From Bacteroidota bacterium (GTDB taxonomy: Bacteria; Bacteroidota; Bacteroidia; Chitinophagales; Chitinophagaceae), in the NCBI GenBank assembly GCA_018267545.1, contig JAFDYG010000490.1, positions 1 to 64,000 of the forward strand: a DNA stretch of 64,000 nucleotides, written 5' to 3'. Of the stretch, positions 44,848-61,517 are shown piece by piece (within the stretch, counting starts at the first letter, position 1; each line of letters begins with the position of its first letter). The notes under the pieces are model-generated. The model ran no database searches. It had not been told where the DNA came from and was given only the letters and a program-made list of their open reading frames with translations. Position numbers and translations under genes: made by a program.

Positions 44848-47277
44848 CTATTTCACGACATACCGTTGCCCCTTTTTGGTCTTGAGAACCACAGGCGCCT
44901 CATTGCCATTACGAACGATACAGTCGCCCCCATTCCGTGAAAAAATAGACGCCTTCACCAGCCGTCCACCTTTCCATTCCATATCCACCACAAATCCGCC
45001 CCTGGCGACAAGCCCCTTTACCGATCCATCCGCCCACGCATCCGGCAAGGCCGGCAGCAGGTGCACGTCCCCATCCTGGCTCTGTAACAACATCTCCGCA
45101 ATCCCCGCCGTCCCTCCAAAATTCCCGTCGATCTGAAAAGGAGGATGCGCGTCGAACAGGTTCGGATAAGCTCCCCCACCTTCTCCATCGTATTCCACCA
45201 CATTCTCCCTTGTCAGTCTCAACAAACGCCTAAAAAGCAGATACGAATGATTCCCATCCATCAGTCTCGCCCAAAGATTGACCTTCCATGCCATACTCCA
45301 ACCCGTCCCAACATCCCCACGCAAAATCAATGATTGCCGAACCGCCTTCGCCAGCTCCGGCGTCCGCAGCACCGATATGTCGTGCCCCGGATATAAAGAA
45401 TACAGATGAGACACATGCCGGTGATGCGGGTCCGGCGAAGCATAATCTTTATACCATTCCTGCAATTGCCCCTGACTACCGATCTGATAAGGAAACAACC
45501 GGCTCCGAACCTCCCTCAGCCGCGCGCTAAACACCGCATCTCCTTTCAATACCGAGTCTGCGGACAATAAATTATCGAACAAATCCCGCACAATCCCCAT
45601 GTCCATCGTCGTAGCCACCGAAACATCGGCAACCTTCTTGTCCCCATAGATAAAGTCATTCTCCGGTGACATCGACGGAGCCGTAACCAGCCGCCCCTCC
45701 TTATCCGGGACCAGCCAGTCCAGCACGAATTGCGCAGCCCCCTTCATCAAAGGGTAAGCCGTATCCTTCAAAAAAGCCTTATTGCCCGTATACAAGTAGT
45801 GTTCCCATAAATGCCGAACCAGCCACGCTCCCCCCATCGGCCAGTTCGCCCATTTCGGCTCTCCCCCGCCCTTGTTCCCCACCGGCGTAGCCAGCGCCCA
45901 TATATCACTGTTATGATGCACTACCCACCCATCCGCTCCATAAAATTCCTGAGCCGCCTTCCGCCCCGTCACCGACAGCGCTTGAATAAGCCCTACCAAC
46001 GGAGTAGTCATCTCCGTCAAATTACACTCTTCTGCCATCCAGTAGTTCATCTGCACATTGATGTTCGTCGTATAGTTGGAGCTCCAGGGAGCCCGCAGCT
46101 CCGCATTCCAAATCCCCTGCAGATTGGCCGGCACCCCAGGCGTACGGGAGCTGCTATAGAGCAGATATCGACCATACTGAAAGTACAAGGCCTCCAGTCC
46201 CGGGTCATTCCCGCCCTTCGTATAAGCCGACAGTCTTTCGTCGGTAGGCAGAGCGACAGCCCCTTGTCCCAGCCGAAGCAAAACCCGATCATAATATCGG
46301 TGCACATCCGCTAAATGTCCTTCCCACAGTTGCGCATAGGACTTCGCAGAACCGACTTTCAATAGAGACGACGCGATAACTTCCGCCTTCTCCAGACTCG
46401 GACAACGATCAAAACTCCAAAAGCCCGTCGCCATCGAAACATAAAGCACCACTTCCGACGCCTTGCTCACACTGATCCCACTCGTATCCATCCTCACCGT
46501 CCCATCCACACTCGTCGCCTTCGCCACCATCGCCCAGGACATTCCTCTGCAGGTATCTTTATCGTCATAGATAACCGGATCCTGACTATCCACATAGCTC
46601 GGCTCCACATGCGACGGTGCCTTTCCCCACATCTCATAAGCTCCCCCGACTAGCTTGTGTTTATTCCTCAACAAGCTCGAAGCAGAAATCTTCAGCTGCA
46701 ACGCGCCTTTCTTGCTACAAGTCCATCGAACGACCATCATCTGACCAAAAGCCGGAATAAACACTTCCCGCAAATATTCTACCCCACCCACTTTATACTT
46801 TGTCCGTACCACCGCATCCCGGATATTCAATTCCCGTTCGTACCCCCCAGAATCACTTCCCCCAAAGTCTTGATGAATATGCAAATCCCCCAACGGCAAA
46901 TAGCTCTCCGACCAAACTCCCTGCATCTTCCTCGCCAGCTTCTCCGCCGCAGGATAGTCCTCCTCGAACAAAGCCTTCCGCAAAGGAGCCAGATACCCCT
47001 TCGCCGAAGGATTGACCGTATCCCTCACCGGTCCACCCGACCAAAGCGACGACTCGTTCAATCCAATCACCTCATCCCCCACACGCCCATACACCATTCC
47101 CCCCAATCTTCCATTCCCCAACGGCAAGGCCTCCGTCCATACCGCCGCCGGCTGACGATACCATAGCCGCTCGTCTTTCACCTGCCGCTCATCCTTCACC
47201 TTTCGCCCGTCTTTCACCTGCGCAAAAATCCCGATCGTATTCCACGTCAGGATGCTCAAAAAGAAAATTATCTTCAT
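44848..47277 (-). CDS. GH95 alpha-L-fucosidase
   Basis: 809 residues with a signal peptide ending at IFAQ. The GH95 signature begins at [18 protein letters not shown]. Active-site equivalents of the Bifidobacterium 1,2-alpha-L-fucosidase are visible: Asn405 and Asn407 in [10 protein letters not shown], Glu539 in SMSPENDF and Asp717 in [13 protein letters not shown]95 enzymes remove terminal alpha-1,2-fucose (or related alpha-L-galactose) by inversion. Between signal peptide and domain lie three tandem copies of a VKDERQ-like hexapeptide. The start overlaps the stop of the GH35-GH92 gene as ATGA. It is the last gene of the locus and supplies the capping-sugar activity for complex glycans. Confidence 0.92.
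47164..47217 (-). repeat. Three 18-bp tandem repeats at mature N-terminus of GH95
   Basis: Residues 21-38 read [18 protein letters not shown], encoded by three consecutive 18-bp units that differ at only a few positions. They lie between the signal peptide and the catalytic domain and look like a recent slippage expansion. Confidence 0.75.
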
Positions 47278-50200
47278 GGATTTGTACTTTCCTTAGAATA
47301 GATCGTTAAAATATCCTTTTCCGATAAAGCCTCCACAAATATCCTCGGCCGCCGGAAACCACCTTTATAGAACCGCTGCCCGGGAAACTCCTCATTCCCC
47401 CCAACCATCCACACATTGTCCCCCCCTGATAAATGTACGTTTTTTTCCAGCGGCGTAAATCCCTTCGGCTGCCCGTCGATATAAACCCTTAAACCGCTTT
47501 TGTCGCACACACCCGCGATCAGGTGCCACTTTCCAACCCAGTCCGCTGGCAGATCGACCGTACAGTCCCCCCTTCCCCACCCGCCGGCAAAAAAGCTCAA
47601 CTGCTTCCCATTCACCACCTGCAGCACATGATTGTCTCCATTAGTAAATACATCCACCAATCCACCAACCCTCTCTTCCGGACGCACCCAGATCATCATC
47701 GTCAACCGCTCACCCAAATCATCAAGACTCGGACTACCCTTTATTCGAATAAGCCCACCCTCCGAAACAGCCTTGTTGCCAAAGCCCGACCGATCCACCA
47801 ACCCGCTATCCAAATCCAAAACCAATGCATCGGCAGCCAACGAATATACCCTAAATCGCTGCTCACGATCTCCAACCTTCAACACATGCCAACCCGGCTT
47901 TTCCCCCACAAGCACCATCGACCCGAAACGTTCTTCACCCGCATCCAACCCCACCGTATCAATCCCCACAATCCTCCCATCCACCCGAACCGGCACCCGA
48001 AAATCCATTCCCTTCCACCCAATATTTTTCAAGCCATACTGCAGCTTAGAACTATCTTTAAACATCACCCGCATATCCACCTTATCGACAATCGGCAGCA
48101 CCGGCAGCTTCTCCGAAGCCACCACCTCCACTATCCCAAAATCCAACGAATCCAACCTCAAATGTTGCTTCCCTTTTTTATACAATCGAACCCCGATACG
48201 CTCGTCAATTCTTTTTCCCTCCTCTACCAAAAAATTATACCCAGCCACTCGATATACCCCTGTGCTCCCCTTATTCTCCAAAACAAACCTTCCCGTCACC
48301 TCTTCTCCAGGCTTCACCCGGCGCCGGTCCACCGACAGACCGGAGACAACAAAAGATGGCTTCCGTCGATCACTCGCCCGCAAATCCGCCCCCTCCCTAA
48401 ACACCAGCTCCCCACCCTTCATCACCTCGGCATGCGACAACTCCGTCGTACCAAACGGTTTCCCGTTCAATAACAAACTCCCCTTCTCCAACAACCGCCG
48501 CACTATCCAATCCTTTCCATTCTCCAAATGCACCGTTACCTTCCTAAAAACCGGTTCACCCAACGAATACACCGGACTTCCCGGGCACGAGGGAAAAAGA
48601 CCCATCGCGCTAAACACATACCAGCTCGACATCGCCCCTAAATCATCATTCCCGGGCAATCCCCCCGGCCGGTTACTATACCGCTCAGACATTATTTTCC
48701 GCACCCAATCGACAGTCATCCCATGCCGGTTGGCCTCATTGAAAAAATAAGGCAGGTGCAAAACAGTTTCATTGTCGAATACAATCCGTCCATCCCGCAG
48801 AGCAGAATCCAATCGTTGACAAAACGCCCCCTCTCCACCCATCAGATCGATCAACCCACCCGGGTCATGCGGCGCAAAGTAACTGTACACCCACGCATCT
48901 CCCTCTTTATAACCGGAATTCCCCAGCTTCACCCGAAACGAATCCTCTACCCTCGGCAACAACAACAAAGAAGGTATATACAACAAATGACGATAAGCCA
49001 TCGAACGCCGCTCCAAAGAATCGGCCATCGAACCATCCCCCATCACCTTCCTTGCATACTGCGCCAGCACCCAGTCGTCATAGCCATACTCCACCGTCCT
49101 CGTCACCGACTCCGGATAGGTCATCGGAATATATCCAAGCTGGCTATAAACAGTCCTGTCATCCTGTACAAAAGGTCCCCGAACCAAACTCTTCAGCATA
49201 GCATCATATAATAAAGAACTATCCCCTATCCGGAGACCCTTCAACCACGCATCCACAAGAATCGGCACAGAATGATTTCCCGTCATCGATTCCACCGGCA
49301 GATGACCGTCGCGCTTATATTTATCCATCATCGAAAGCAGCATCTCCTTCTGCTTCTCCGGGTACAGCAAGCTCAACAAAGGATGTAAGGATCGATAGCT
49401 GTCCCACGGTGAAAATTGCCCGTACCCTCCACCAGGCATGCGCCAGGGCACTAATAAAGAATGATATAAGGCCGTATAAAAAATAGTCTTTTTGTCCACA
49501 TCCTCATCTTCCACATCGACCACCGAAAGCGCCTTCCTCCATTCTTCCCTGGTCATCTCCCGCAGCGCATCAAACCCAACATTCCCAATCCTCGCCTCAA
49601 CTACACGCTCATCAAAAGAATACACCACTCCCCCCTCCACCTCTTTCCGAGAGGTATACGCAACACTAAACTGCATACTGTCCCCCACAAAAATCTTAGA
49701 AGCCACACCTTCAGGAAAACTCACCCGAAACACACCCCCATTATCACCCGCCGTCGCCTCCACCACCGTCCCATCATCCTTCAATCTTACCTTATAATAC
49801 CCCGGCTCCGCCTCCTCATCCGCATGCGAAAAAGGCCTCCCCCTCCCATCCCCCGGCATCATATAAAACCGTCCCGCAGAACCATTCGGAAATCCACTGG
49901 CATGTCCATAACTGCTAAACCGTTCGATCACCGAATCCCCATAATCATATCCCCCCTTCCTCGTCTCCGGCGTCAGTTGCCAATACCCCCAGGGCGCCAC
50001 CGCACCCGGATAGGTCCCCCCCTCATTCCCCCATCGCGTATAGACATCACTCTTCGTCGTACCAATAAAGGGATTGACATACCCCAGCAAATCCTCTTCC
50101 ATCAGCTGCTTCGGCCGCGTCGCCCCCTCTTCTATGACAATGCTTACCTTCGAAGCATCCTTCCCATCCTCGTCAAAAATCCGCAAGCTATTCCTCCCCG

Positions 50201-52664
50201 AATGCAACCAGCACTCCGGTATATACAAACCCGGCGCAGGCACTTTCTCCGGATACCGGCCCAGATTATACCCATTGACCCAAACCGAACCATGCCCAAG
50301 CCCCTCCGGCACTATCCTCCATATCGTCACATGCCGCGGATTCTCCGGCAACATAAAATCTGTACTCCACCAGCAAGGCCCCGGAGCCTTACCCGCACGA
50401 TCCCCCATGCCCCCCTTCATCCTCCATCCACGAACCTCTACCGGCGACAAGAACGGAGAGAACCGTACCGGCTGATCAATCCCCCCTTCATTACTAAAGT
50501 TCTCGATGACCACCCTCAACCGTATCGGCCTCCGCATGGTATCGACTCCATCCAATAACACATTGAACGGAGAATTCCATCCCTCATGCCTCGTCAGCTT
50601 CCGGTCATTGATATAGACATCCGCATTTTCATCCACACTCGCAAATCTCAATTCCGCCTGCCGCACTCCCGCCGCCACTTCCGGCAGCACCGTCTCGAAG
50701 GTGGCAACCCCCTGCTTCTTATCGAATACGTCTTCTCCAATTTTATAGGGCCGGGAAACACCATCCTTCACCACTTTCCAATCCGTCAACGAAACCACGG
50801 CAGGCGCTCCCTTAACCAGCAATGTGCGACCAAACAATCCCTTGCGAGCTACCGAATCCAGTCCTCCAATGTACGCAGGTAGCTTGTCCCGCCCGTCATG
50901 CGCAGTAAAGACCGCCAACACATGCCGCCCCGCCCCTAATCTCAACCCGATCGCTCCGGCTTTTATATCCACCGAATCCATCGCCTTACCATCCACATAT
51001 ACCCTCACACGATCCGCCCCTTCCACCAACAACGTATATTCCCCTGACTTCGCTACCCTTACTTCCGTCCGATACCAGGCCGAAGCCGTGCTATCTCCGT
51101 CCGCCCCCATCTGCAACGGCCATTCACTATACTTCCAAGAACTCGCGTCATACCCCGGTTCCGCCACACCCGTCGTCGACACCCGCTTCCACTCCCCCAC
51201 AACTACATGTTTTTCCAACTGTCCAGCCCATCTTACAGGCTTATACTTCTTCGTATCTTCACCCGTATACAATAATGCCCCAACAGTATCCTCCGTCTCG
51301 AACCCCTCCTCTTTCATTTCCCCAACGTAACGAGGGCCAACCACTATCTTATCTCCAATAATCCAACAACGATCCGCCGCTTCATCATTCATCACAAGCA
51401 CCCTTACCTGCTTCCCCATCCAATATACCGAAGGCTCCCGACCCGCCGGCACCGTCACCTCGATCCCCCCGGTCGAAAACTCCATCCGCCCCTTACTCCC
51501 CGCAACCCCATACGCGATCAATGTAGTCACCTCTCCTTGCCGAACTAACCCCAACAACGGCAAGCTATTCCCTACCATCCGCACATCTCCCGCCAGCAGG
51601 CAATCCTTCACCACCGGCACTTTCCCCGAAAAATCAACCTTCGCCCCGACAAAGCTCCGCGCAAACCAGGCCGCTTTCTTAAAAGCATAATAAATAGGCC
51701 GCAGATCACCCGCCTGCCCTACCGCCGCGCCATAATCATAAGAAGCCGCATCCTCATCGTTGTTCGTATACCCAAAGTTGCTCCCCCCATGCGCCATATA
51801 GTAGTTGTACCCGGCCCCGCCCCGCGCAATGATCTTCCAGGTCCGCTCCGCAAACGTCTTCGCTTCCTTCTCCCCTGACCCATACCCATTGTACCAAACA
51901 CTCCAAAATTCCGTCGAAAACCACGGATTGGGCCGCGACGCATCGTCCAGCGACACCGCATCTCCCGCCGGGTCATTCGCATGATGCAGCCCGCTAAAAA
52001 AATAAGGCACCTCCAAGCCCAGCGACAAAGCCTTCTGTTGCAGCCACGTAAAATAGCTATTCGGCATATCCGTCCCCCAGCCCAAAGGATGCTCATTCTC
52101 CAATTGCACCATAATGACCGAACCACCTTTATGCACTTGATTCCTCAGAACAATCGGCAGCAGCCTGTCGAAAAACAGTCCCACATATTTCTGAAATTCT
52201 TCGTTCGGTTCCCGAACCCGAAGTCCCGGCTTGAACTTCAGCCACAACGGATAGCCCCCATTGTCCCACTCCGCACAGTAATAAGGCCCCACCCGTACGA
52301 TCGAGTACATTCCCAGCTCCTGGACCAGTTTCAAAAACGCGCCCAAATCCTTTTCCCCACTAAACTCAAAAGCGCCCTCCCTCGGCTCATGCCAGTTCCA
52401 AAAGGTATAGACTTCCACACAGTTGAAACCACACCGCTGCAGCCGCAGTAATCTATCCCGCCACAACGCCCTCGGCACCCGCGCATATTCGATACCCGCC
52501 GATACCAGAAACGTCCGCTGTCCCTTTATAAAAAATCCCTTCTTGTCGAAATCGATTGAATTCCTCGCAGCGGCCGCCGCAGGAAAGATATGATCGTTCG
52601 GCTGCTGGGCGACGGCAAGTCCCATCCCCCAGCAACACAAAAGCAAACTATAAATTAGACGCAT
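47274..52664 (-). CDS. GH35 beta-galactosidase - GH92 alpha-mannosidase - LamG fusion
   Basis: 1796 residues with a signal peptide ending at AVAQ. The GH35 barrel (about 35-350) has [15 protein letters not shown], the acid/base motif VQLENEHP (189-191) and nucleophile Glu252 in [13 protein letters not shown]; jelly-roll domains run to about 850. A second enzyme starts at about 858: [76 protein letters not shown], all GH92 marks, to about 1430. A CARDB-like beta domain (about 1435-1610) and a LamG/concanavalin domain (about 1615-1790) finish it. The GH92 part is about 570 residues, shorter than usual, and its [13 protein letters not shown] region seems to lack several residues. It overlaps GH89 by 17 bp and GH95 by ATGA. 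Confidence 0.9.
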
Positions 52665-54834
52665 ATTTCTTATAAAGCCCCTTGACTATCTCGATCGAAT
52701 TGCCCGTAGGCTCCTCCGCATAGACCACACCCGTAGTATTGACCCATTTCCATTCCCAATCCCTGATCGACTTCTCGAAGTCCGCCGTCTCCATCCGCGC
52801 CCCACGCCCCATCTTCCCCTTTAGGTACACAAAGAACTGCGCCCACCGCGGTTTATAAAAGTCCTTGACCAACCCCGCCCACTGCCTGCATGAATATTCG
52901 TGCAGCCCGCTTTCCTTATCCCCCCAGAGCGTGATCAGATCACGAGCGTTCTTTTCATACAGGTCCTTCTCCGCCGCATCCACCCCACAACGACGCGCAT
53001 CCCCGATCCATCGACCCAATAAAAAATCCTTTCGGGTAGCCAGCAGCGCATCCATATCGTCCATCAGCGCCAAAAACTCGGCCGTATATCGATCATAGTC
53101 CGCCTCGTTATGTTGCAGATAAGCCAGCACCCATTTCTGCTGTAATGGCAACGCATAGTTGGCAAGCACCTGCCGCGTGACATCCACCAGGTCGTACTGG
53201 AACCCATCACTGCCTCCCAACGAATCGGAAGCCTCCACCAACAGTCCCCAGGCCTTCGCCAGCTCCGCAGGCTGATAGTCCAGCACCGTTCTTATCCGGT
53301 CTCCCCAGGGCTCTATCTGAGGCCTCGATTGCAGGATCGACTCCGGCCCCCCTTCTCCAAGACCTCCCTTATAAACCGTTTCCGACAATATCTTCCAGGC
53401 GGCATTCGCCTTCGAGTTCTCAGCGCCATAACGCTGAAACGCATATGATCGTAGCCACGACGATAGATCGATAACGCTATCCCTCCACACATTGTCCAGC
53501 ATCAATTGATACAAGGCCGGATTCTGCTCGATACCCTCCGGCGTCAGCCCAATTCCCTTCATCGAACCCGAGACAGGACTGGCCAGCGCCTTCGCAGGCC
53601 CTTCCGCCACAGCCCCCATCCTGCCCCAAAGCGAGATATTCCCGCCAAAGTTGTGCAGCATGTTCCAGATCCACGGCTTGCCATAATAGGCATTGGTCCT
53701 CGTCCAGACCGGGTGACTTTCGCTATAAAGGTCCAGCACGATCATCTGATCGTCCGGCACAGCTTTTAACAATGCCTGTATCTGCGGCCCTCTCCAATAA
53801 GCCGAGTCATAATGAAACATCCAGCCCTGCATGACCCAGATCGCCTTCGGGTCGGCGCCGGCCATAGAAGCAAAGACTTTTTTGCTCATCGAGCTCAGAT
53901 AGGTAGAGTCGTCAGTAGGTGGGAGATTTTCGTTAAACGTATCGGCCGAATAGAAGTGATCGGTTCCATATTCCTGCGTCTGCGCCTCGATAAACTGGCG
54001 ACCAATCTTCTCGAAGAGAGGGTCCCCCGGATCGAGAATATAAACATCCGGAAATCCAGCCCCCCAGTTCGTCTTCTTCACCTTCGCCTGGGGATATCGC
54101 TGTACGAAGCTCGGCGGCACATGACCCGTAAACGAAGCCAGCACCGGCTTCATCCCCATCGCCCGCTCAGCCCCAAGTATCTTCTTCTGCAATTCCCGGT
54201 GTGAGTCCATCCAGTGCTGCGGCAGCGGCCCACCCCAGGCATCGATATTCCCCATCCAGAACCAGCTGAAATACGCCGGCCCGCAAAAGAACTTGTCCAG
54301 CTCCCCATCGCTAAAGCCCATGGCCCTGTAGACCCGCTGCCAGATCGCCTCCTCCCCCGTCAACGCCAGCGGCAGATTGATCCCATTCAGGGTCATCCAG
54401 TCGATCTCCCGCTGCCAGCGTTCCCAGTCCCACCAGGCCATCGAGTAATTGAACGTACAGTAGTTGATATAATACCGGTATGTATAAGGCGTCACTCGCC
54501 GCACTTTCCCCTTGACCACCGGCAGGACCGCCGGCAGTCGCAGCTCCCCTCCATTCCAAATCGATAAGCTATGACAGTATTCTCTTAAATAGCAATTTAG
54601 CGCCGAACCCACACTCAATCCATTGCTTCCCCGCAGCACGATCTTCCCCTTCCGGCTCTCTAATTCGAACACATCCTTCCCCTTTACAGGCGCCACATAC
54701 TCCGCGACAAATGCCCCGGCATGCGAACCCGTTACCCGGGCAATAAATGCAGTTACAGCATCCTTATCGATTTGTGAGTACCCATTTTTGATACCCACCA
54801 GTCCAAAAAAAATAAAAAATAACCGCGCTCTCAA
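52648..54834 (-). CDS. GH89 alpha-N-acetylglucosaminidase
   Basis: 728 residues starting with TTG at 54834, since no ATG occurs in frame before residue 132 and the signal peptide (RARLFFIFFGLVGIKNGYSQ) begins right there. The start overlaps the SusD stop as TTGA. NAGLU-family motifs: YRYYINYCTFNYSMAWWDWERW, MTLNGINLPLALTGEEAIW, GGPLPQHW, ADTFNENLPP with Glu302 and GIGLTPEGIEQNP with Glu433. Their 131-residue spacing matches the catalytic pair of human NAGLU (316 and 446). It removes terminal alpha-linked GlcNAc, found for example on gastric mucin and heparan sulfate. Exported, acting after SusCD import or at the surface. Confidence 0.93.
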   Translation of the reverse strand: MRARLFFIFFGLVGIKNGYSQIDKDAVTAFIARVTGSHAGAFVAEYVAPVKGKDVFELESRKGKIVLRGSNGLSVGSALNCYLREYCHSLSIWNGGELRLPAVLPVVKGKVRRVTPYTYRYYINYCTFNYSMAWWDWERWQREIDWMTLNGINLPLALTGEEAIWQRVYRAMGFSDGELDKFFCGPAYFSWFWMGNIDAWGGPLPQHWMDSHRELQKKILGAERAMGMKPVLASFTGHVPPSFVQRYPQAKVKKTNWGAGFPDVYILDPGDPLFEKIGRQFIEAQTQEYGTDHFYSADTFNENLPPTDDSTYLSSMSKKVFASMAGADPKAIWVMQGWMFHYDSAYWRGPQIQALLKAVPDDQMIVLDLYSESHPVWTRTNAYYGKPWIWNMLHNFGGNISLWGRMGAVAEGPAKALASPVSGSMKGIGLTPEGIEQNPALYQLMLDNVWRDSVIDLSSWLRSYAFQRYGAENSKANAAWKILSETVYKGGLGEGGPESILQSRPQIEPWGDRIRTVLDYQPAELAKAWGLLVEASDSLGGSDGFQYDLVDVTRQVLANYALPLQQKWVLAYLQHNEADYDRYTAEFLALMDDMDALLATRKDFLLGRWIGDARRCGVDAAEKDLYEKNARDLITLWGDKESGLHEYSCRQWAGLVKDFYKPRWAQFFVYLKGKMGRGARMETADFEKSIRDWEWKWVNTTGVVYAEEPTGNSIEIVKGLYKKYASNL

Positions 54835-56414
54835 TAATTGGGATTTTGTTTGATCACCCCCTTGCTCTCATCGATAATCTGCTGAGGCAAGGGCATATAA
54901 TAGTCCTTTGGCCTTACAAATGTACGCGCTGGAATGATAACTGAGCCATTATAGGGGGGCAGCGGAGAAGCCGCCTTGGGTTTGCTGACGATCGTATCCA
55001 GGTTGATCAGCTTGTCCTTGTCCCAACGCAGCAAATCCTGCCAACGGGTGTTTTCTGCACCCAGCTCGACACGACGTTCGTGGATCAGCTGGGCCATCGT
55101 TGCTCCGCTTCTCGGCAGCAACCCGGCGCGGGTCCGCACTTTATTCAACTCTGCATCCCCGCCGCCGGGACCATTCTGCCTTATTTTGGCCTCAGCAACC
55201 AGCAGATAGATGTCTGCCGTACGTAACAGCGGCTGCTTGAGATTGAAGTCTATTTGTCCATTGTGAGCCGGGTTGCCGTCCGATACAAAGGCCGTATATT
55301 TTCGGACACAATAGCCCGTCGCCGACATGCTCGGCAGCATCCGTCCCGTAGACTGCCCTTCTTTCCCGGCAAACATTTGATAAGCATCCGGCGCACCGAT
55401 GTCCACGATGTTCTTCTGATAAGGGATGGTATCCCCGACCGAAACCAGCGTAGCCCGCTTACGAATGGTGTCCGCCGTCTCGAATTCATCGGCGAAGTTC
55501 TGCGTCGGCTGATGGAAACCCCATCCCTGCCAGGATCGGTTCGTAAAATACTGGCTGATAGCCGAGGTCGGAACGTTGGCGGTCAGCTGGCTGTTGTTCC
55601 ATACCGCAAACAGTATCTCGGAATTGCTTTCCTGGTTGCCGACGGTAAAGTTATCCGCGTAATTTGTAGCAAGCGCATAGTTGGGATCACTGATGACCTT
55701 CGTTCCATAGGTGACCGCATCCGCAAGACGGTCTTCAATCATATACAGCTTACAAAGCATCCCCCACGCCGCACCCTTGCTCACCCTGCCCCTATCGGCA
55801 TCCCCATAGGTCTCAGGCAGCAGATTCGCAGCTTGCAGAAAATCGTTTTCAGCCTGCTTCCGAACGCTGTCGATCGACGATTTTGCTACATTGTAGTCCA
55901 CCGCCGTTACATTCTTCTCGGTAATGATGGGCACGTCTCCATAGATCTCGCTCAGGATAAAGTAGGCATAGCCACGCAAAAAGTATGCTTCGCCCATCGA
56001 ACGCTGCCTGATCGGATCGTCCATAACCGGCACCTTGGGAATATAGATCAACGCATTGTTCGCCCTTCCGATCTGCTCATAGGCAAACGGCCAGGTAACG
56101 CCGATCAGCTGAAGAGTGGCATCCGCATTGAATCTCTCCACGGCCCAGAAATCGGAGTGGTCACCCGCTACACTGATATCGTCCGACTGGTCATCGTAAA
56201 CATAGATATGGTGCCCGATATAGTCTTCCGTATACAAAATATTATAGATCCCATTGATACCGGCCAGCACGTCGTTCTGGTTCCGCCAGTAGTTCCCGGT
56301 ATTATACTGCCCGCTCTGCACCTGGTCCAGGGGGTGCTTGATACAACCCGCAATCACAGCCGCAGCCGCCAGGGAAAGAATGCCAAGTATTATATAGTTG
56401 CGTCTCTTTTTCAT
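54831..56414 (-). CDS. susD: SusD-like glycan-binding lipoprotein (RagB/SusD family)
   Basis: 527 residues. The lipobox VIAGC places the lipidated Cys at residue 24. The tetratricopeptide scaffold is visible as GEAYFLRGYAYFILSEIYGDVPIITE, AWGMLCKLYMIEDRLADAVTYGTKVI, and the C-terminal DIYLLVAEAKIRQNG, LNKVRTRAGLLP and LIHERRVELGAENTRWQDLLRW, all SusD/RagB landmarks. It would form the lid on the SusC channel at the cell surface and bind the oligosaccharide. It starts 16 bp after the SusC stop and its stop overlaps the GH89 start, so receptor and first enzyme are translationally linked. Confidence 0.95.
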   Translation of the reverse strand: MKKRRNYIILGILSLAAAAVIAGCIKHPLDQVQSGQYNTGNYWRNQNDVLAGINGIYNILYTEDYIGHHIYVYDDQSDDISVAGDHSDFWAVERFNADATLQLIGVTWPFAYEQIGRANNALIYIPKVPVMDDPIRQRSMGEAYFLRGYAYFILSEIYGDVPIITEKNVTAVDYNVAKSSIDSVRKQAENDFLQAANLLPETYGDADRGRVSKGAAWGMLCKLYMIEDRLADAVTYGTKVISDPNYALATNYADNFTVGNQESNSEILFAVWNNSQLTANVPTSAISQYFTNRSWQGWGFHQPTQNFADEFETADTIRKRATLVSVGDTIPYQKNIVDIGAPDAYQMFAGKEGQSTGRMLPSMSATGYCVRKYTAFVSDGNPAHNGQIDFNLKQPLLRTADIYLLVAEAKIRQNGPGGGDAELNKVRTRAGLLPRSGATMAQLIHERRVELGAENTRWQDLLRWDKDKLINLDTIVSKPKAASPLPPYNGSVIIPARTFVRPKDYYMPLPQQIIDESKGVIKQNPNY

Positions 56415-56430: not shown

Positions 56431-59400
56431 TTAGAAATTCACCGTCGCTCCAACGGTAATGTTACGGGATTGAGGATACTGCGCTACGTCCACCCCACGC
56501 TGCAAGCCGGGAGTGACCGCGTACGGATTTTGAACACTAGGCCCCGAAGCCCCCGGATTGGTATATCCCAGCTCGGGAGTATATCCCTTATATCCGGTAA
56601 TTGTAAAGGTATTGTAGCTGCTGACGTAGACCCGGATATCGGGAATCTTCGCACTTCCGATTTGAAGCTTTGGCAGGGTGTATCCGATCGAAACACTCTT
56701 CAACGTAAGATAAGCGCCATTTTGTACCCACATATCCGAAGACCGGTAGTTGTTGTTCAGATTCTCGATCGACAGACGCGGAATGCTGTTGCTCGTATTC
56801 ACCCCATGCCAGCGGCCGTTCTGCTCGGCATACCAGTTGAATACCTGCGTAGCATCCAGACCCGCGAGACGGTCCGCATTGTACAGCGAAAAGCCCGTAG
56901 CGCCGGTGAAATTGAAAGCGAAGTCGAAACCCTTATAGTTTAAAGACCCATGGACGCCAAACTGAAAACGCGGATTGGGATCACCCAGTCTCGTCCGGTC
57001 CTTGTCATCGACCACGCCATCTCCGTTCAGGTCACGGAAATGCACATCGCCAGGCTTAATGTCTCCCCTGTTTGGATCTTTCGCCACGTCCGCAGATTTG
57101 TCGATATCATCCTGCGTCTGATAAAGACCCGCCGTCTTGAACCCATAGAAAGAAGCCATCGGCTGCCCTTCATAAGTACGGGAGATATCGACGTTCTCAC
57201 GGCCATAGATGGGGCCCGAGAGATATACATTGTCCCCGAATAGACGAGTCACCTTATTGCGGATGATCGAACCATTCGCCCCGAATGAATACCCCAGCTT
57301 CCCGGCCGTATTCGAATAGTTGACTTCGATTTCTACCCCTTTATTATTGATCTTGCCCAGGTTCAGGTCGGGCAGGGAAATATTCCCGCCATTGTCCGTC
57401 GTAAGACCATTTCCCCGCTGGGCGCCAAACGTCTCGACCAGCTGAAAAGGGATCAGCATGTCCGTCGTATTTTTATTGAAGTAGGTTACCGTTGCAGACA
57501 GATGATTGTTCAGCGTCGAAAGCTCCGCGCTGATATTGGTCATGACCGACCGCTCCCAGGTAATATCCGGATTGGCGATGCTGATGACATAGGCGCCGTT
57601 TTGGTAGACCGTACCCGTGCCCGTGCTATAGCCGTATCCACCGCCGCCAAGACCGCCGCCGCCACCATACCCGATTCCGCTCAGGTACTGGAAGTCGCCG
57701 ATATTCTGGTTACCCAGCTGCCCCCAGCCGCCCGTGATCTTGAGCGAATTGAGGAAATGGACGTTGTCCCGGAAAAAGTCCTCATCCGATACACGCCAGC
57801 CGGCCGAAAAAGCCGGGAAATAACCCCAACGCTTCCCAGGTGCAAACTTGCTGCTGCCATCCGCCCTGAAAGTCGCCGTCAGCAAATATTTGCTCATGAA
57901 CGAGTAGTTGCCCCGGATAAAATACGACTGCAAACCGGCGGTCGGTGAGTTGAAGCCCGTGTTGCCGGCGCTGCTGCTGTTCCCCAGATCCAGCACACGC
58001 TGGTTGATGCTCGTATCGTCATATCCGATTCGCGAGGCATTGAAGTAATTTCCTTTAAAGGTCTGCGCAGAATAACCACCCGTCAACGTAAGATTGTGCT
58101 GACCAAAGAGCTTGTTATAAGTAAGGTAGTATTCTTCCAGGAAGGACCAGCTCTTCCCGGAACCACGCGTCAACGTAGACGAGCCCGGTCCGCGAGCCTG
58201 TTCCGGCATCGCATTATCGAACTGATAGAGGTCTTCCGTCATCTGGTCGTAACCATAGTTCGCCCGGATCTTCAGCCCCTTGATGATTTCCAGCTCGGCA
58301 TATCCATTCGCGAGAATCCGGTCGAATTGATCATGCTTGTCTGTTTCCTGAGCCGTCGCCACAGGATTGTTGATATCTCCCAGTCCTGAAACGGACGCGC
58401 CATAGCTGCCATCCGGATTGAATATCGGGATCCCCGGGTTGAATCGTAACGCGCTCCACACCAGTCCCGCCTGCGTAGACTTGGTATTGGGAGACGCGCC
58501 ATCCGTATGCGAGTACACCAGGTTCTCCCCAACTTTCAACCGGTCGAAGATCTTATGCTCCGAATTGATCCTTGCGCTGTAACGTTTAAAAAAGGAATTG
58601 GGAATCATCCCCTTCTGGTCGAAATAGTTGCCGGAGAAGCTATAGGTGCTGGAATTATTCCCGCCCCGCAGCGCAAAGTCCGCATTCTGCGTATGCCCCG
58701 TGGTAAACAGAGCTCTCTGCCAGTCGGTCTTTTGCGTAGCATAGGTATCTCCCGACCAAACGGTGGGAATCGTCAATCCATCGTTCGTATAAGCCTCCCG
58801 TTTCAGCTTGACCAGATCCGGAGCCGTCAGCACGTCCAAATATTTTACCGCCTTGTCGACGCCATAATAATAGCCCACGCTCGTCTTCATCTGCTCGCCG
58901 AAACTCCCCTTCTTCGTCGTGATCAGCACCACTCCATTAGCAGCACGGCTGCCATAGATCGCCGAAGAGCTCGCGTCTTTCAGGATTTCCACCGAAGCAA
59001 TATCGTTCGGATTGACATCATTTAGTCCATTGGCCGGTACCCCATCGATCACGACCAGCGGATCTGAGTTGTTCAACGTACCCGTACCCCGGATACGGAT
59101 GCTCGGGTTGCTGCCGGGGCTGCCGTCATCCCGGATAATGTCTACACCGGAAGCACGACCTTGCAAAGCGCCCGCCGCATTGCTCACCGGTAGGTTCTTG
59201 AAGTCGTCCCCCTTTACCGTACTGATACTGCCCGTTACGTCTCTCTTACGCTGTGCACCATACCCCACGACGACCACGTCCGCCAGACCCGTCGCATTGG
59301 GCTGCAGCTTGACCGAAAGGTTATTCGATCCATCCAACCCAACCCGCTGCTCTTTATACCCGACATAGCTGATCACCAGCTCTTCGCCGGTGGCCGCATC

Positions 59401-59859
59401 GATGCTAAAATTTCCGTTCTCGTCCGTCTGAACAGTACGTGCTCCGCTGCCGAGCTTTATCGTTACTCCTCCAAGCGGCTTACCACTCTCATCCGTCACT
59501 TTTCCTTTAATAGCCGTATCCGGTCTCGACGGGTCAGCCGCCTGTCTCAACGGAGTGATGATAACCTTCCGATCGTCCTTGATCGTATAGCCAAACTTCC
59601 CCGACAGCACCTTATCCAGTATACTGTTCAGCGAAGCATCCGTAACATCCAGGTCTATTTTACCCAGCTGCCGCAGATAGTCGTTATTATAAAAGAACCG
59701 GTACCTGCTTTCCTGCTGGATAGCATTGAAGATCTCATGCGCCCCCACCTGCTTGACGTGGAAGCTGAACTTTTCCTGGGAATAGCCATGAGCGGACACT
59801 TGCAGACAGAATGCCATGAGCAAAGCGAGGCTCATTTTCATTGGCAAAAATTTCAGCAT
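56431..59859 (-). CDS. susC: SusC-like TonB-dependent transporter with STN domain
   Basis: 1142 residues from the ATG at 59859; a longer frame begins at a TTG at 59880 that overlaps fecR and is less likely. After the signal peptide (ending at GYSQ), residues about 30-105 form an STN domain (VGAHEIFNAIQQESRYRFFYNNDYL, DASLNSILDKVLSGKFGYTI), the signal-transducing module that contacts FecR anti-sigma factors. A carboxypeptidase-like domain follows (IKGKVTDESGKPLGGVTIKL), then the plug with VVVVGYGAQRKRDVTGSIS, GRASGVDIIRDDGSPG and VEILKDASSSAIYGSRAANGVVLITTKKG. The rest is the large barrel. It imports oligosaccharides with SusD and reports the ligand to FecR and the sigma factor encoded just upstream. 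Confidence 0.95.
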   Translation of the reverse strand: MLKFLPMKMSLALLMAFCLQVSAHGYSQEKFSFHVKQVGAHEIFNAIQQESRYRFFYNNDYLRQLGKIDLDVTDASLNSILDKVLSGKFGYTIKDDRKVIITPLRQAADPSRPDTAIKGKVTDESGKPLGGVTIKLGSGARTVQTDENGNFSIDAATGEELVISYVGYKEQRVGLDGSNNLSVKLQPNATGLADVVVVGYGAQRKRDVTGSISTVKGDDFKNLPVSNAAGALQGRASGVDIIRDDGSPGSNPSIRIRGTGTLNNSDPLVVIDGVPANGLNDVNPNDIASVEILKDASSSAIYGSRAANGVVLITTKKGSFGEQMKTSVGYYYGVDKAVKYLDVLTAPDLVKLKREAYTNDGLTIPTVWSGDTYATQKTDWQRALFTTGHTQNADFALRGGNNSSTYSFSGNYFDQKGMIPNSFFKRYSARINSEHKIFDRLKVGENLVYSHTDGASPNTKSTQAGLVWSALRFNPGIPIFNPDGSYGASVSGLGDINNPVATAQETDKHDQFDRILANGYAELEIIKGLKIRANYGYDQMTEDLYQFDNAMPEQARGPGSSTLTRGSGKSWSFLEEYYLTYNKLFGQHNLTLTGGYSAQTFKGNYFNASRIGYDDTSINQRVLDLGNSSSAGNTGFNSPTAGLQSYFIRGNYSFMSKYLLTATFRADGSSKFAPGKRWGYFPAFSAGWRVSDEDFFRDNVHFLNSLKITGGWGQLGNQNIGDFQYLSGIGYGGGGGLGGGGYGYSTGTGTVYQNGAYVISIANPDITWERSVMTNISAELSTLNNHLSATVTYFNKNTTDMLIPFQLVETFGAQRGNGLTTDNGGNISLPDLNLGKINNKGVEIEVNYSNTAGKLGYSFGANGSIIRNKVTRLFGDNVYLSGPIYGRENVDISRTYEGQPMASFYGFKTAGLYQTQDDIDKSADVAKDPNRGDIKPGDVHFRDLNGDGVVDDKDRTRLGDPNPRFQFGVHGSLNYKGFDFAFNFTGATGFSLYNADRLAGLDATQVFNWYAEQNGRWHGVNTSNSIPRLSIENLNNNYRSSDMWVQNGAYLTLKSVSIGYTLPKLQIGSAKIPDIRVYVSSYNTFTITGYKGYTPELGYTNPGASGPSVQNPYAVTPGLQRGVDVAQYPQSRNITVGATVNF

Positions 59860-59863
59860 AACT

Positions 59864-60913
59864 CTAGTTTTGGTCGACAATTAATTTTACCTGGTTACTG
59901 TCTATTTTATAATTGAACTTCGTCGTCATTTTTAGGATGTCCAGGGCTTGCTGCAGGCTTTCTTTCTCGAAAATACCGCTCACATGCTGCCTGCGCAGTC
60001 CCTCGCTTTCAAACGCTATATGCACCGCATACCGCCGCTCCATCTGCCGCACCACCTCTTCAAAAGGCTCATTATTGAAAATGAGCTTGTCTTCTACCCA
60101 GGCCGTCTCCGGAACCACTTCTTCGTGCTCGGTCTGGGGCAACGATAGCACCTGATAACGCAATTCGTTCTCCGTAAGGCCTTTTTCTTTATTGGTATTG
60201 GCAACCGTCAGCTTCTCATTCGGCGAAAGAAGTATTTTCTTCTCGGGGTCTTCATTCAGAATCACCTGTATCTTTCCGCTAATCAAGGTCGCAGAAACCT
60301 GCGCGTCCTCCCGGTAAGCCTTTACGTCGAATCTTGTACCCAGAACCCGCACCGTAATCTTCCCCGTATGTACAAAGAAGGGTTGATGAGTCTGCTGCGC
60401 CACATCGAAAAAAGCCTCCCCTTCCAGCTCCACTTCCCTGGTCTTCCCGACAAAAGAAGAAGGATAGATCAGCCGGCTTCCCGCATTCAACCACACCTTC
60501 GTCCCATCCGCCAGCACCAGCATCGACTTGCCCCCATAACCCACCTGCGTGGAATTACTGGCCACCACGGGGGGCCGCCGGCTCACCCGGTAATAAGCGA
60601 CAAATCCTCCTAATAGCACGATCAAAAGCGAAGCGGCCGCAACCCATACTTCCCAACGGGGCATCCTCCTTACTGTCGCCCCCTTGTTCATTTTCTCCGC
60701 CAAATGCGCCCAACCGCTGCTCGCCAGATCTTCGGCCGGCAAAGGCTTCTCCATACTTTTCAATGAAGACGCCACCTCCGACAGATATGAAAAAGACGTG
60801 TGAACGGACAACAATTGCTCCAGTTCCTCCAGCTCCTCGGGCAAAGCCACCTTCCCCATCTTCTTCGCCATTAATTCGATAATCCGTTGATGTGCAGTTG
60901 AAAAATCTCTCAT
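59864..60913 (-). CDS. FecR family anti-sigma factor (FecR-DUF4974)
   Basis: 349 residues. The cytoplasmic N-terminal helix bundle (1-85) is followed by one membrane span (about 89-108, WVAAASLLIVLLGGFVAYY). The periplasmic part has the FecR domain (GGKSMLVLADGTKVWLNAGSRLIYP, GEAFFDVAQQTHQPFFVHTGKITVRVLGTRFDVKAY) and the DUF4974 domain (LIFNNEPFEEVVRQMERRYAVHIAFE, SLQQALDILKMTTKFNYKI) at about 270-345, which has the same fold as STN domains. It keeps the ECF sigma factor inactive until SusC reports ligand. It is 18 bp after the sigma gene, and the SusC ATG follows its stop by 4 bp. Confidence 0.95.
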   Translation of the reverse strand: MRDFSTAHQRIIELMAKKMGKVALPEELEELEQLLSVHTSFSYLSEVASSLKSMEKPLPAEDLASSGWAHLAEKMNKGATVRRMPRWEVWVAAASLLIVLLGGFVAYYRVSRRPPVVASNSTQVGYGGKSMLVLADGTKVWLNAGSRLIYPSSFVGKTREVELEGEAFFDVAQQTHQPFFVHTGKITVRVLGTRFDVKAYREDAQVSATLISGKIQVILNEDPEKKILLSPNEKLTVANTNKEKGLTENELRYQVLSLPQTEHEEVVPETAWVEDKLIFNNEPFEEVVRQMERRYAVHIAFESEGLRRQHVSGIFEKESLQQALDILKMTTKFNYKIDSNQVKLIVDQN

Positions 60914-60931: not shown

Positions 60932-61507
60932 TTATTCCGCATTTTTCTTAAAAGAAACGGAAAAATTTTTCGGCAGGGAGGGGCGGAGCGCCTCCTCCAG
61001 CTTCTTCAGGGCAATGGTCAGCTGGGTAGTGACCGTCTTATAAGAGATGTCAAGAATACTGGCCACTTCGGCAGCCGACAAGCCATCTTCTTTTACTAGT
61101 TTGAATATCAATTTACAACGACCCGGCAGTCCGTCGATCGACGCCTCGATTTTCCGCCTCAGCTCGTCGGTGACCAGCAGCTGCTCCGGGTCGGGACTCA
61201 AATAGAAATGATGAACCACCTGGTTCTCCAGGTCGATCGTAACCCCCTTAACTTTTCGAAGATAATTGGCCGCCGTATTCCGGACCGCTACATAAAGATA
61301 CACCTGTATATTGTCGATCGAATTCAGCTTCGACCGGTTCTGCCATAGCTTCAAAAAAACATCGTTGACGATCTCCTCCGCCTGTTCGCGGCTTTGAATA
61401 AAAGTAAAAGCAAATTGGAACAGCTTGAATACATGCTCGGTATAGAACTGCCGGAAAGCAGTCTCATCATTTTCGAATTGTATCCGATACAGTAGTGCGG
61501 AGGACAT
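60932..61507 (-). CDS. ECF RNA polymerase sigma factor (Bacteroidetes SusC/FecR type)
   Basis: 191 residues from the ATG at 61507; a further in-frame start 13 codons upstream would overlap the previous gene. Region 2 is TAFRQFYTEHVFKLFQFAFTFIQSREQAEEIVNDVFLKLWQNR with the core-binding helix. Region 4 is IDGLPGRCKLIFKLVKEDGLSAAEVASILDISYKTVTTQLTIALKKLEEAL with the -35-binding helix-turn-helix. It should direct transcription of the susCD locus when released by FecR. It starts only 10 bp after the stop of the upstream FG-GAP gene, so it may also be transcribed from a promoter farther up, outside the window. Confidence 0.94.
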   Translation of the reverse strand: MSSALLYRIQFENDETAFRQFYTEHVFKLFQFAFTFIQSREQAEEIVNDVFLKLWQNRSKLNSIDNIQVYLYVAVRNTAANYLRKVKGVTIDLENQVVHHFYLSPDPEQLLVTDELRRKIEASIDGLPGRCKLIFKLVKEDGLSAAEVASILDISYKTVTTQLTIALKKLEEALRPSLPKNFSVSFKKNAE

Positions 61508-61517
61508 AGATGGTGTT

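What the first reader, a model, noticed from the sequence alone, without database searches (positions are those of the whole stretch)
47274..52664. Two complete glycosidases (GH35 and GH92) fused to a LamG domain in one 1796-residue exported protein
Residues 1-850 form a whole GH35 beta-galactosidase with both catalytic Glu motifs. From residue 858 a GH92 alpha-mannosidase follows, then a CARDB-like and a LamG-like domain. The reading frame is continuous, with no stop or frameshift at the linker ([12 protein letters not shown]). GH35 and GH92 act on different sugars, so the fusion suggests one substrate carrying both beta-galactose and alpha-mannose, with the lectin-like end holding the enzyme on it. 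I know of no described enzyme with this order.
Basis: partly seen in the sequence, partly recalled or inferred. Interest (0 to 1): 0.75.

Follow-up and report, generated by a model that had tools for sequence, protein, structure and literature searches.

The report
Repeatedly fused glycan-trimming enzymes in Puia
A bacterium related to Puia encodes one exported protein that carries two complete sugar-cutting enzyme modules, and relatives show that neighbouring enzyme genes of this glycan-digestion cluster were joined more than once, in some species into a three-enzyme protein of about 2,700 residues.

Summary
The 1796-aa ORF at 47274-52664 (-) carries a GH35 module, a GH92 module and a LamG domain, with aligned catalytic residues present and no stop at the junction. 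It is not an artefact: GH35-GH92 fusions occur in five other genomes of the genus, and the internal signal peptide seen in split relatives is missing at all 6 fused junctions printed. The larger finding is the locus. A SusC/SusD cluster with gene order GH89-GH35-(NagX)-GH92-LamG occurs in Puia and in Mucilaginibacter and Pedobacter. Within Puia it occurs split, as GH89-GH35|GH92, as GH89|GH35-GH92 (the window), as GH89-GH35-GH92-LamG (about 2,700 aa), and with a GH89-GH20 fusion. The GH35-GH92 state needs three changes on the tree, and one fused clade is rejected. LamG also belongs to the stand-alone GH92. Other GH-GH fusions occur in the genus: a new variant of known multicatalytic PUL enzymes, most likely a bifunctional, probably periplasmic exo-glycosidase acting after GH89.

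The parts
47274..52664 (-). 1796-aa GH35-GH92-CARDB-like-LamG fusion protein
   Evidence: relatives of the same order in G022 (65% identical, cut by the contig end) and G027
52605..52664 (-). Signal-peptide-like start (about aa 1-20); no lipobox seen by eye
   Evidence: Read from the sequence; no signal-peptide predictor was run
51672..52535 (-). GH35 catalytic domain (aa 44-331), acid/base Glu191, nucleophile Glu252
50190..50378 (-). Beta-galactosidase galactose-binding domain (aa 763-825)
50088..50135 (-). GH35/GH92 junction (aa 844-859): short, no hydrophobic segment, predicted with block pLDDT 87-89
49674..50081 (-). GH92 N-terminal domain (aa 862-997), shortened
48396..49601 (-). GH92 catalytic domain (aa 1022-1423), Glu1254 and GNDD 1338-1341; FDNET from 1296 in place of HGN(E/Q)P
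47745..48362 (-). Beta-strand-rich, CARDB-like segment (about aa 1435-1640)
   Evidence: model; CARDB matched in 3 of 12 A1 members, not in the window's own
47310..47714 (-). LamG / ConA-like domain (aa 1651-1785)
44848..47277 (-). GH95 enzyme, 4-bp overlap with the fusion gene; Thr403 at the Thr370/His419 position
52648..54834 (-). GH89 (NAGLU-like) gene, 17-bp overlap with the fusion gene; Glu302 and Glu433 align with Glu of human NAGLU (that these are its catalytic pair is recalled)
54831..56414 (-). SusD-like protein
56431..59880 (-). SusC-like TonB-dependent receptor; STN domain below its cut-off
59864..60913 (-). FecR-type protein
60932..61546 (-). ECF-type sigma factor

Best explanation
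The ORF is a genuine bifunctional exo-glycosidase of a polysaccharide utilisation locus (PUL) in a species of the genus of Puia dinghuensis (Chitinophagaceae). It arose by fusion of two neighbouring genes, a GH35 and a GH92-CARDB-LamG gene, with deletion of the GH92 signal peptide; in other lineages a spacer gene lies between the two. Proposed function: SusC/SusD import a branched glycan fragment. GH89 removes terminal alpha-GlcNAc, which exposes beta-galactose. The GH35 half removes the galactose. The GH92 half then removes the next alpha-linked sugar, most likely mannose. In the window GH95 removes an alpha-L-fucosyl or alpha-L-galactosyl cap. Shown: domains, conserved catalytic residues, conserved gene order, repeated change between split and fused, no internal signal peptide in fused forms. 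Inferred: fusion rather than fission as direction, periplasmic location, the sugars, the order of action, any gain from fusion such as fixed stoichiometry or a single export event.
For: Domains and motifs. Operon: GH89, fusion and GH95 genes overlap by 17 and 4 bp. Gene order conserved in the Puia loci read and, with NagX between GH35 and GH92, in 14 loci of Mucilaginibacter, Pedobacter and one Sphingobacteriales MAG. Fusions in G000, G022, G027 (35-92), G001, G018, G028 (89-35-92), G003, G004 (89-35), G008, G031 (89-20). Three changes of 35-92 state and one of 89-35; a single clade of the six 35-92 fusions is rejected (p 3.5e-7 on all markers; 3.0e-47 on GH35+GH92 only). Seven split GH92 relatives printed start with a signal-peptide-like segment and six fused ones lack it. 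Model of residues 851-1796: pLDDT 90.8; Foldseek ranks 1-39 are all GH92 chains (E 3e-41 to 3e-31, TM-score by target length mostly 0.62-0.75, 0.38-0.42 for the multi-domain 7nsn). Two bacterial GH89s are reported to recognise GlcNAc alpha1-4Gal (PMC8225759, passages), which fits GH89 before GH35.
Against: No activity was measured. The GH92 N-domain is short, a loop is lost, and the family carries [FYH]DNE instead of HGN(E/Q), so it may have another specificity or be weak. Another bacterial GH89, Bt3590, cuts terminal GlcNAc from heparosan oligosaccharides (PMC8225759, abstract and passages), so GH89 does not fix the next sugar as galactose. Gene order is not order of action. Location is inferred from the start of the protein and from no T9SS domain among the hits. 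The junction model has pTM 0.67, so placement of the halves is not fixed. In G029 no GH35 and in G032 no GH92 lies beside GH89 in the stretch read, so the two are not obligatory neighbours.
Confidence: 0.6

Rival explanations
1. The fusions are neutral. Adjacent, overlapping, co-transcribed genes fuse easily once the spacer gene is gone, and the chain works no better than two separate enzymes.
For: Genes overlap by 4-17 bp in the window and GH35 and GH92 overlap by 4 bp in split relatives G004 and G020. Unrelated GH-GH fusions exist in the genus: GH92-GH9, GH35-GH20, GH92-GH92, GH35-GH29. Outside Puia all 14 annotated loci that hold both GH35 and GH92 have NagX between them, which by itself hinders fusion.
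Against: At least five changes of fusion state in one locus within one genus, read as three 35-92, one 89-35 and one 89-20 fusion. No background rate was measured.
Confidence: 0.4
2. The GH92 half has changed specificity, or is no longer a mannosidase, so the protein is a beta-galactosidase plus a different alpha-glycosidase.
For: [FYH]DNE in 56 of 56 rows against HGN(E/Q) in the four solved enzymes aligned. Loop of 5-6 residues in the window clade against 23 in 45 of 56 rows. N- and C-domain residues that vary drive +1 specificity in GH92 (PMC9522356, section 9 read).
Against: Catalytic Glu and PGNDD are kept (PGNDD 56 of 56; the Glu position reads YxE in 56 of 56). The top structural matches are alpha-mannosidases.
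Confidence: 0.25
3. The protein is displayed outside the cell and the LamG domain holds it on a polymer or mucin.
For: LamG domain, a ConA-like lectin/glucanase superfamily model.
Against: No lipobox seen by eye and no T9SS domain among the hits; LamG is equally present in stand-alone GH92s; exo-acting PUL enzymes are usually periplasmic (recalled).
Confidence: 0.15
4. Assembly or sequencing error merged two genes.
For: The window genome is a 553-contig assembly.
Against: GH35-GH92 fusions in five other genomes, among them the 30-contig genome matching Puia dinghuensis; no relic of a signal peptide at the junction.
Confidence: 0.01

Closest known systems
Stand-alone GH92-CARDB-LamG proteins of Chitinophaga, Mucilaginibacter, Pedobacter, Niastella and Bacteroidales MAGs
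   Same: Same GH92 N and catalytic domains, middle segment and LamG; 29-50% identical to the window part in A2
   Different: Separate gene, own signal-peptide-like start in those printed, mostly about 1,020-1,200 aa; most keep the 23-residue loop
GH92 alpha-mannosidases of PDB 6f8z (BT3130), 2wvx (BT3990), 2wvy (BT2199), 7zgm (plant N-glycan alpha-1,3-mannosidase)
   Same: Fold, catalytic Glu, last Asp of the GxxD motif
   Different: Single enzymes with HGN(E/Q)P; the window has FDNET, a shorter N-domain and a lost loop
GH35 beta-galactosidases of PDB 3d3a and 6eon (name BT0290 recalled)
   Same: Catalytic domain with both Glu and a galactose-binding domain
   Different: 612 and 779 aa chains; here 850 aa with a middle that hardly aligns and a fused GH92
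Multicatalytic PUL enzymes of Bacteroidetes, e.g. fused acetyl-feruloyl esterases (PMC7110780) and CE15-GH8 (PMC8417218); seen as search listings with the start of the abstract
   Same: Two catalytic domains in one PUL protein
   Different: Those carry esterase domains; this carries two, in relatives three, glycosidase modules of different families

Membership tests
GH35 | Pfam GH35 catalytic domain above curated cut-off | tested here: met
   248.6 bits against 27
GH35 | Both catalytic Glu residues | tested here: met
   Glu191 and Glu252 align with PDB 3d3a; 6eon has Ala at the first of these positions, taken as an engineered mutant
GH35 | Beta-galactosidase activity | not testable with these tools
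   No assay
GH92 | GH92 N and catalytic domains above cut-off | tested here: met
   91.6 bits against 34.5 and 363.1 against 24.6; TIGR01180 366.4 against 249.55
GH92 | Catalytic Glu (EGN/EGD) and G(N/D)(D/E)DxG motif | tested here: met
   Glu1254, GNDD 1338-1341
GH92 | HGN(E/Q)P motif of the four solved members aligned here (not part of the Pfam definition; bears on specificity) | tested here: not met
   FDNET in the window; [FYH]DNE in 56 of 56 rows
GH92 | Calcium-dependent alpha-mannosidase activity | not testable with these tools
   No assay
Polysaccharide utilisation locus | SusC/SusD pair beside glycoside hydrolases | tested here: met
Multicatalytic CAZyme | Two complete catalytic domains in one chain | tested here: met
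   for the three-enzyme relative L042
Multicatalytic CAZyme | Both domains active in the fused chain | not testable with these tools
   No assay
GH95 neighbour as alpha-1,2-L-fucosidase | His at the AfcA His419 position | tested here: inconclusive

The most novel reading that the evidence does not exclude
Puia has repeatedly built assembly-line glycosidases: the order of modules GH89-(GH20)-GH35-GH92 follows the order in which sugars are removed from a capped glycan (alpha-GlcNAc, beta-HexNAc or beta-Gal, then alpha-Man or another alpha-sugar). Selection for physical coupling drove independent GH35-GH92 fusions, and the GH92 belongs to a family of unknown specificity.
Probability: 0.25. Interest if true: 0.7.

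Novelty: new variant of a known kind. Interest (0 to 1): 0.5.

Why it matters
Bifunctional CAZymes are known, but one locus seen split, half-fused in both ways and fully fused among close relatives is a natural experiment on whether joining successive exo-enzymes helps glycan digestion. It also gives a Rosetta-stone link: GH89, GH20, GH35 and this GH92 family probably act on one glycan, which narrows the search for the substrate and for the specificity of a widespread GH92-LamG family for which I saw no characterised member.

Tried and rejected
Rejected: assembly error (GH35-GH92 fusion in five other genomes, no relic signal peptide). LamG as a gain tied to the fusion. One ancestral fusion of the six 35-92 proteins, and one ancestral triple fusion (AU tests; triple p 1.2e-54 and 4.2e-9). 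Two fusions plus fissions is not excluded by counting, but is less likely because split G004 has its own GH92 signal-peptide-like start.

Led nowhere or limited: the plasmid search found no record covering 80% of the protein (136 records with partial matches, 5 listed). NagX search of the window's own genome found 4 matches elsewhere, best 57%, so its loss beside the fusion says little about function. Ten paper searches listed no paper on GH35-GH92 or GH89-GH35 fusions; only open-licence PMC papers are held and listings were capped in part, so this is not proof. Of the 46, 4 are fused (each equal to a Puia genome already read), 16 have a separate GH35 (14 with NagX between, 2 Puia), 26 have no GH35 in the stretch, 5 of these with GH89. 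Of the 32 other genomes, I fetched the locus from 14, chosen for strong matches, so 6 fused of 33 is a lower bound. Of 8 stretches fetched, 7 proteins were scanned. The trees used 21 and 20 chosen loci. A conflict: SusC/SusD of G028 group with G243 and Niastella while its enzymes group with G018, so the test was repeated on GH35+GH92 alone. I had seen the FastTree before the AU tests; the groups were set by gene structure. Signal peptides were judged by eye. Foldseek ranks 40-50 are weak matches of lectin-like parts to other proteins, among them a GH43 arabinanase and clostridial neurotoxin binding domains; nothing was made of them.
Full report
Observation. The minus-strand ORF 47274-52664 codes for 1796 aa. 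Pfam finds GH35 (44-331), a beta-galactosidase galactose-binding domain (763-825), GH92N (862-997), GH92 (1022-1423) and Laminin_G_3 (1651-1785), each above its cut-off. The GH35 Glu pair (191, 252) and the GH92 Glu1254 and GNDD motif are present. The 'CARDB' segment is not a Pfam hit in the window but is in 3 of 12 A1 members; the model of residues 851-1796 (pLDDT 90.8, pTM 0.88) shows beta strands there. Foldseek ranks 1-39 are GH92 chains.

Setting. On the same strand, upstream to downstream: ECF-type sigma factor, FecR, SusC, SusD, GH89, the fusion, GH95. GH89 overlaps the fusion gene by 17 bp and the fusion overlaps GH95 by 4 bp. This is a polysaccharide utilisation locus.

Relatives. The genus is that of Puia dinghuensis: same-genus genome G001 has a contig of the same length, with the locus at the same place, as P. 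dinghuensis CGMCC 1.15448. In the genus search 26 of 33 genomes had some match. I read the locus in 14 of the 32 other genomes. States: GH89 | GH35-GH92-LamG in G000 (window), G022, G027. GH89-GH35-GH92-LamG, 2668-2713 aa, in G001, G018, G028. GH89-GH35 | GH92-LamG in G004, and in G003 on two contigs. All three split in G017 and G020. GH89-GH20 fused in G031 and G008 (Pfam); GH35 and GH92 are separate in G031, and G008 is cut by the contig end. GH89 | GH92 in G029, GH89 | GH35 in G032. G016 has a GH35 beside distant Sus genes. Among 46 annotated LamG-GH92 loci of named records, 4 show GH35-GH92 fusion, each equal to a Puia genome above; 16 have a separate GH35 (2 of them Puia), 26 have none in the stretch. 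In the family search (394 genomes, E <= 1e-100) 17 had a match; 5 of these were known, and I fetched the other 12: none shows a GH35-GH92 frame. G096 keeps GH35 and GH92 apart with a methionine-synthase-like ORF between.

Other lineages. 14 loci (10 Mucilaginibacter, 3 Pedobacter, 1 Sphingobacteriales MAG by record title) have GH89, GH35, a NagX-like gene and GH92-LamG together. The 375-aa spacer matches NagX (NF046061, 155 bits, below its cut-off of 480; Pfam Acyl_transf_3 also below cut-off). NagX is a proposed glucosamine acetyltransferase distantly related to human HGSNAT (PMC9007349, passages). So an older form of the locus may have paired a NAGLU-type and an HGSNAT-type protein, and GH35-GH92 fusion needed loss of this spacer, if that order is ancestral. 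In Puia, NagX is kept between GH35 and GH92 in split G031.

Number of fusions. A maximum-likelihood tree of 21 loci on SusC, SusD, GH89, GH35 and GH92-LamG puts the window with G022 and G027, beside split G096 (100/100), and puts the triple fusions elsewhere: G018+G028 beside G004, and G001 beside G003, with split G017 in the same larger clade. GH35-GH92 state changes at least three times, GH89-GH35 once. Holding the six 35-92 fusions together is rejected (p 3.5e-7; 3.0e-47 on GH35+GH92 only). Holding the three triple fusions together is rejected too (p 1.2e-54; 4.2e-9). The seven split GH92 proteins printed start with a signal-peptide-like segment and the six fused ones pass straight from GH35 into GH92; the five GH89-GH35 junctions printed likewise lack one. 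This makes fusion the likelier direction.

Window clade features. The three 35-92 proteins of this clade have 5-6 residues where 45 of 56 aligned GH92s have 23 in a catalytic-domain loop; sister G096 has 22. L061 (Chitinophaga silvisoli) and L071 ([Flexibacter] sp.) have 4, L090 has 18 and four distant rows have 10. [FYH]DNE is found in 56 of 56 rows (FDNET 40, FDNEP 8, YDNET 4, HDNEP 4) where the solved GH92s in the printed alignments (6f8z, 7zgm, 2wzs/2wvx, 2wvy) have HGNE or HGNQ; the other solved GH92s were not printed. This LamG-bearing family may therefore not share their specificity.

Function. Two bacterial GH89s act on GlcNAc alpha1-4Gal, while Bt3590 cuts heparosan oligosaccharides (PMC8225759, passages). 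GH89 followed by GH35 fits removal of an alpha-GlcNAc cap and then beta-galactose, but is not forced. Characterised GH92s are alpha-mannosidases (PMC9522356, passages). GH20 in two genomes would take beta-HexNAc. GH95 in the window has Thr403 where the L-galactosidase BACOVA_03438 has Thr370 and the fucosidase AfcA has His419; the authors leave that position undecided (PMC4491172, passages), and 8zbv, named a fucosidase, also aligns a Thr. The substrate is most likely a branched glycan with alpha-GlcNAc, beta-Gal and an inner alpha-linked sugar; its source is unknown. Location in the periplasm is inference.

Junction. A model of residues 345-1440 (pLDDT 86.5, pTM 0.67) gives the linker region blocks of 87-89; stretches under 50 lie at the ends and at about residues 593-604, 872-880 and 923-929. 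The linker is short and probably ordered, while placement of the two halves is uncertain.

Is it special? The genus also has GH92-GH9 (G000, G002), GH35-GH20 (G000), GH92-GH92 (G018, G028) and GH35-GH29 (G030) proteins; 6 of the 7 proteins that I scanned had two catalytic domains, but they were chosen because they were long. Multicatalytic PUL enzymes are a known kind (PMC7110780, PMC8417218; listings). New here, as far as my searches reach, are the GH35-GH92 and GH89-GH35-GH92 combinations and their repeated origin.

Verdict. Real, interesting, a new variant of a known kind. On checking I lowered the main confidence from 0.65 to 0.6, because a bacterial GH89 acts on heparosan and because NagX lies between GH35 and GH92 in the non-Puia loci that hold both.

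Noticed in passing
L042:6764-14905, L048:5758-13764, L049:5208-13298: GH89-GH35-GH92-LamG triple fusions of 2668-2713 aa in G001 (P. dinghuensis), G018 and G028.
   Followed up: yes
L051:13848-18302 and L052:1412-5530: GH89-GH20 fusion proteins (1484 and 1372 aa) at the same place in two Puia genomes.
   Followed up: partly
L062:8759-9886 and 16 other loci: A NagX (HGSNAT-like) gene before GH92 in loci with a NAGLU-type GH89: counterparts of two successive lysosomal heparan sulfate enzymes in one operon.
   Followed up: partly
L049: In G028, SusC/SusD group with G243 and Niastella while the enzymes group with G018, as if the transporter pair had been swapped.
   Followed up: partly
L148:2596-6510, L150:1709-5794, L151:3353-7810, L152:3401-7978, L153:4030-7971, L154:4-4128: Other GH-GH fusions in the genus: GH92-GH9, GH35-GH20-PA14, tandem GH92-GH92, GH35-GH29.
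   Followed up: partly
61518-63944: FG-GAP/ASPIC-UnbV repeat protein next to the ECF sigma gene; relatives sit near the ECF gene in G022, G020, G008 and G003. Role unknown.
   Followed up: no
L134:9798-10952: A cobalamin-independent methionine-synthase-like ORF lies between GH35 and GH92 in G096, the split sister of the window clade.
   Followed up: no
44848-47277: GH95 lies beside the fusion in the window and G027, not beside the three triple fusions; in G022 the contig ends first. Thr403 hints at an L-galactosidase-like pocket.
   Followed up: partly
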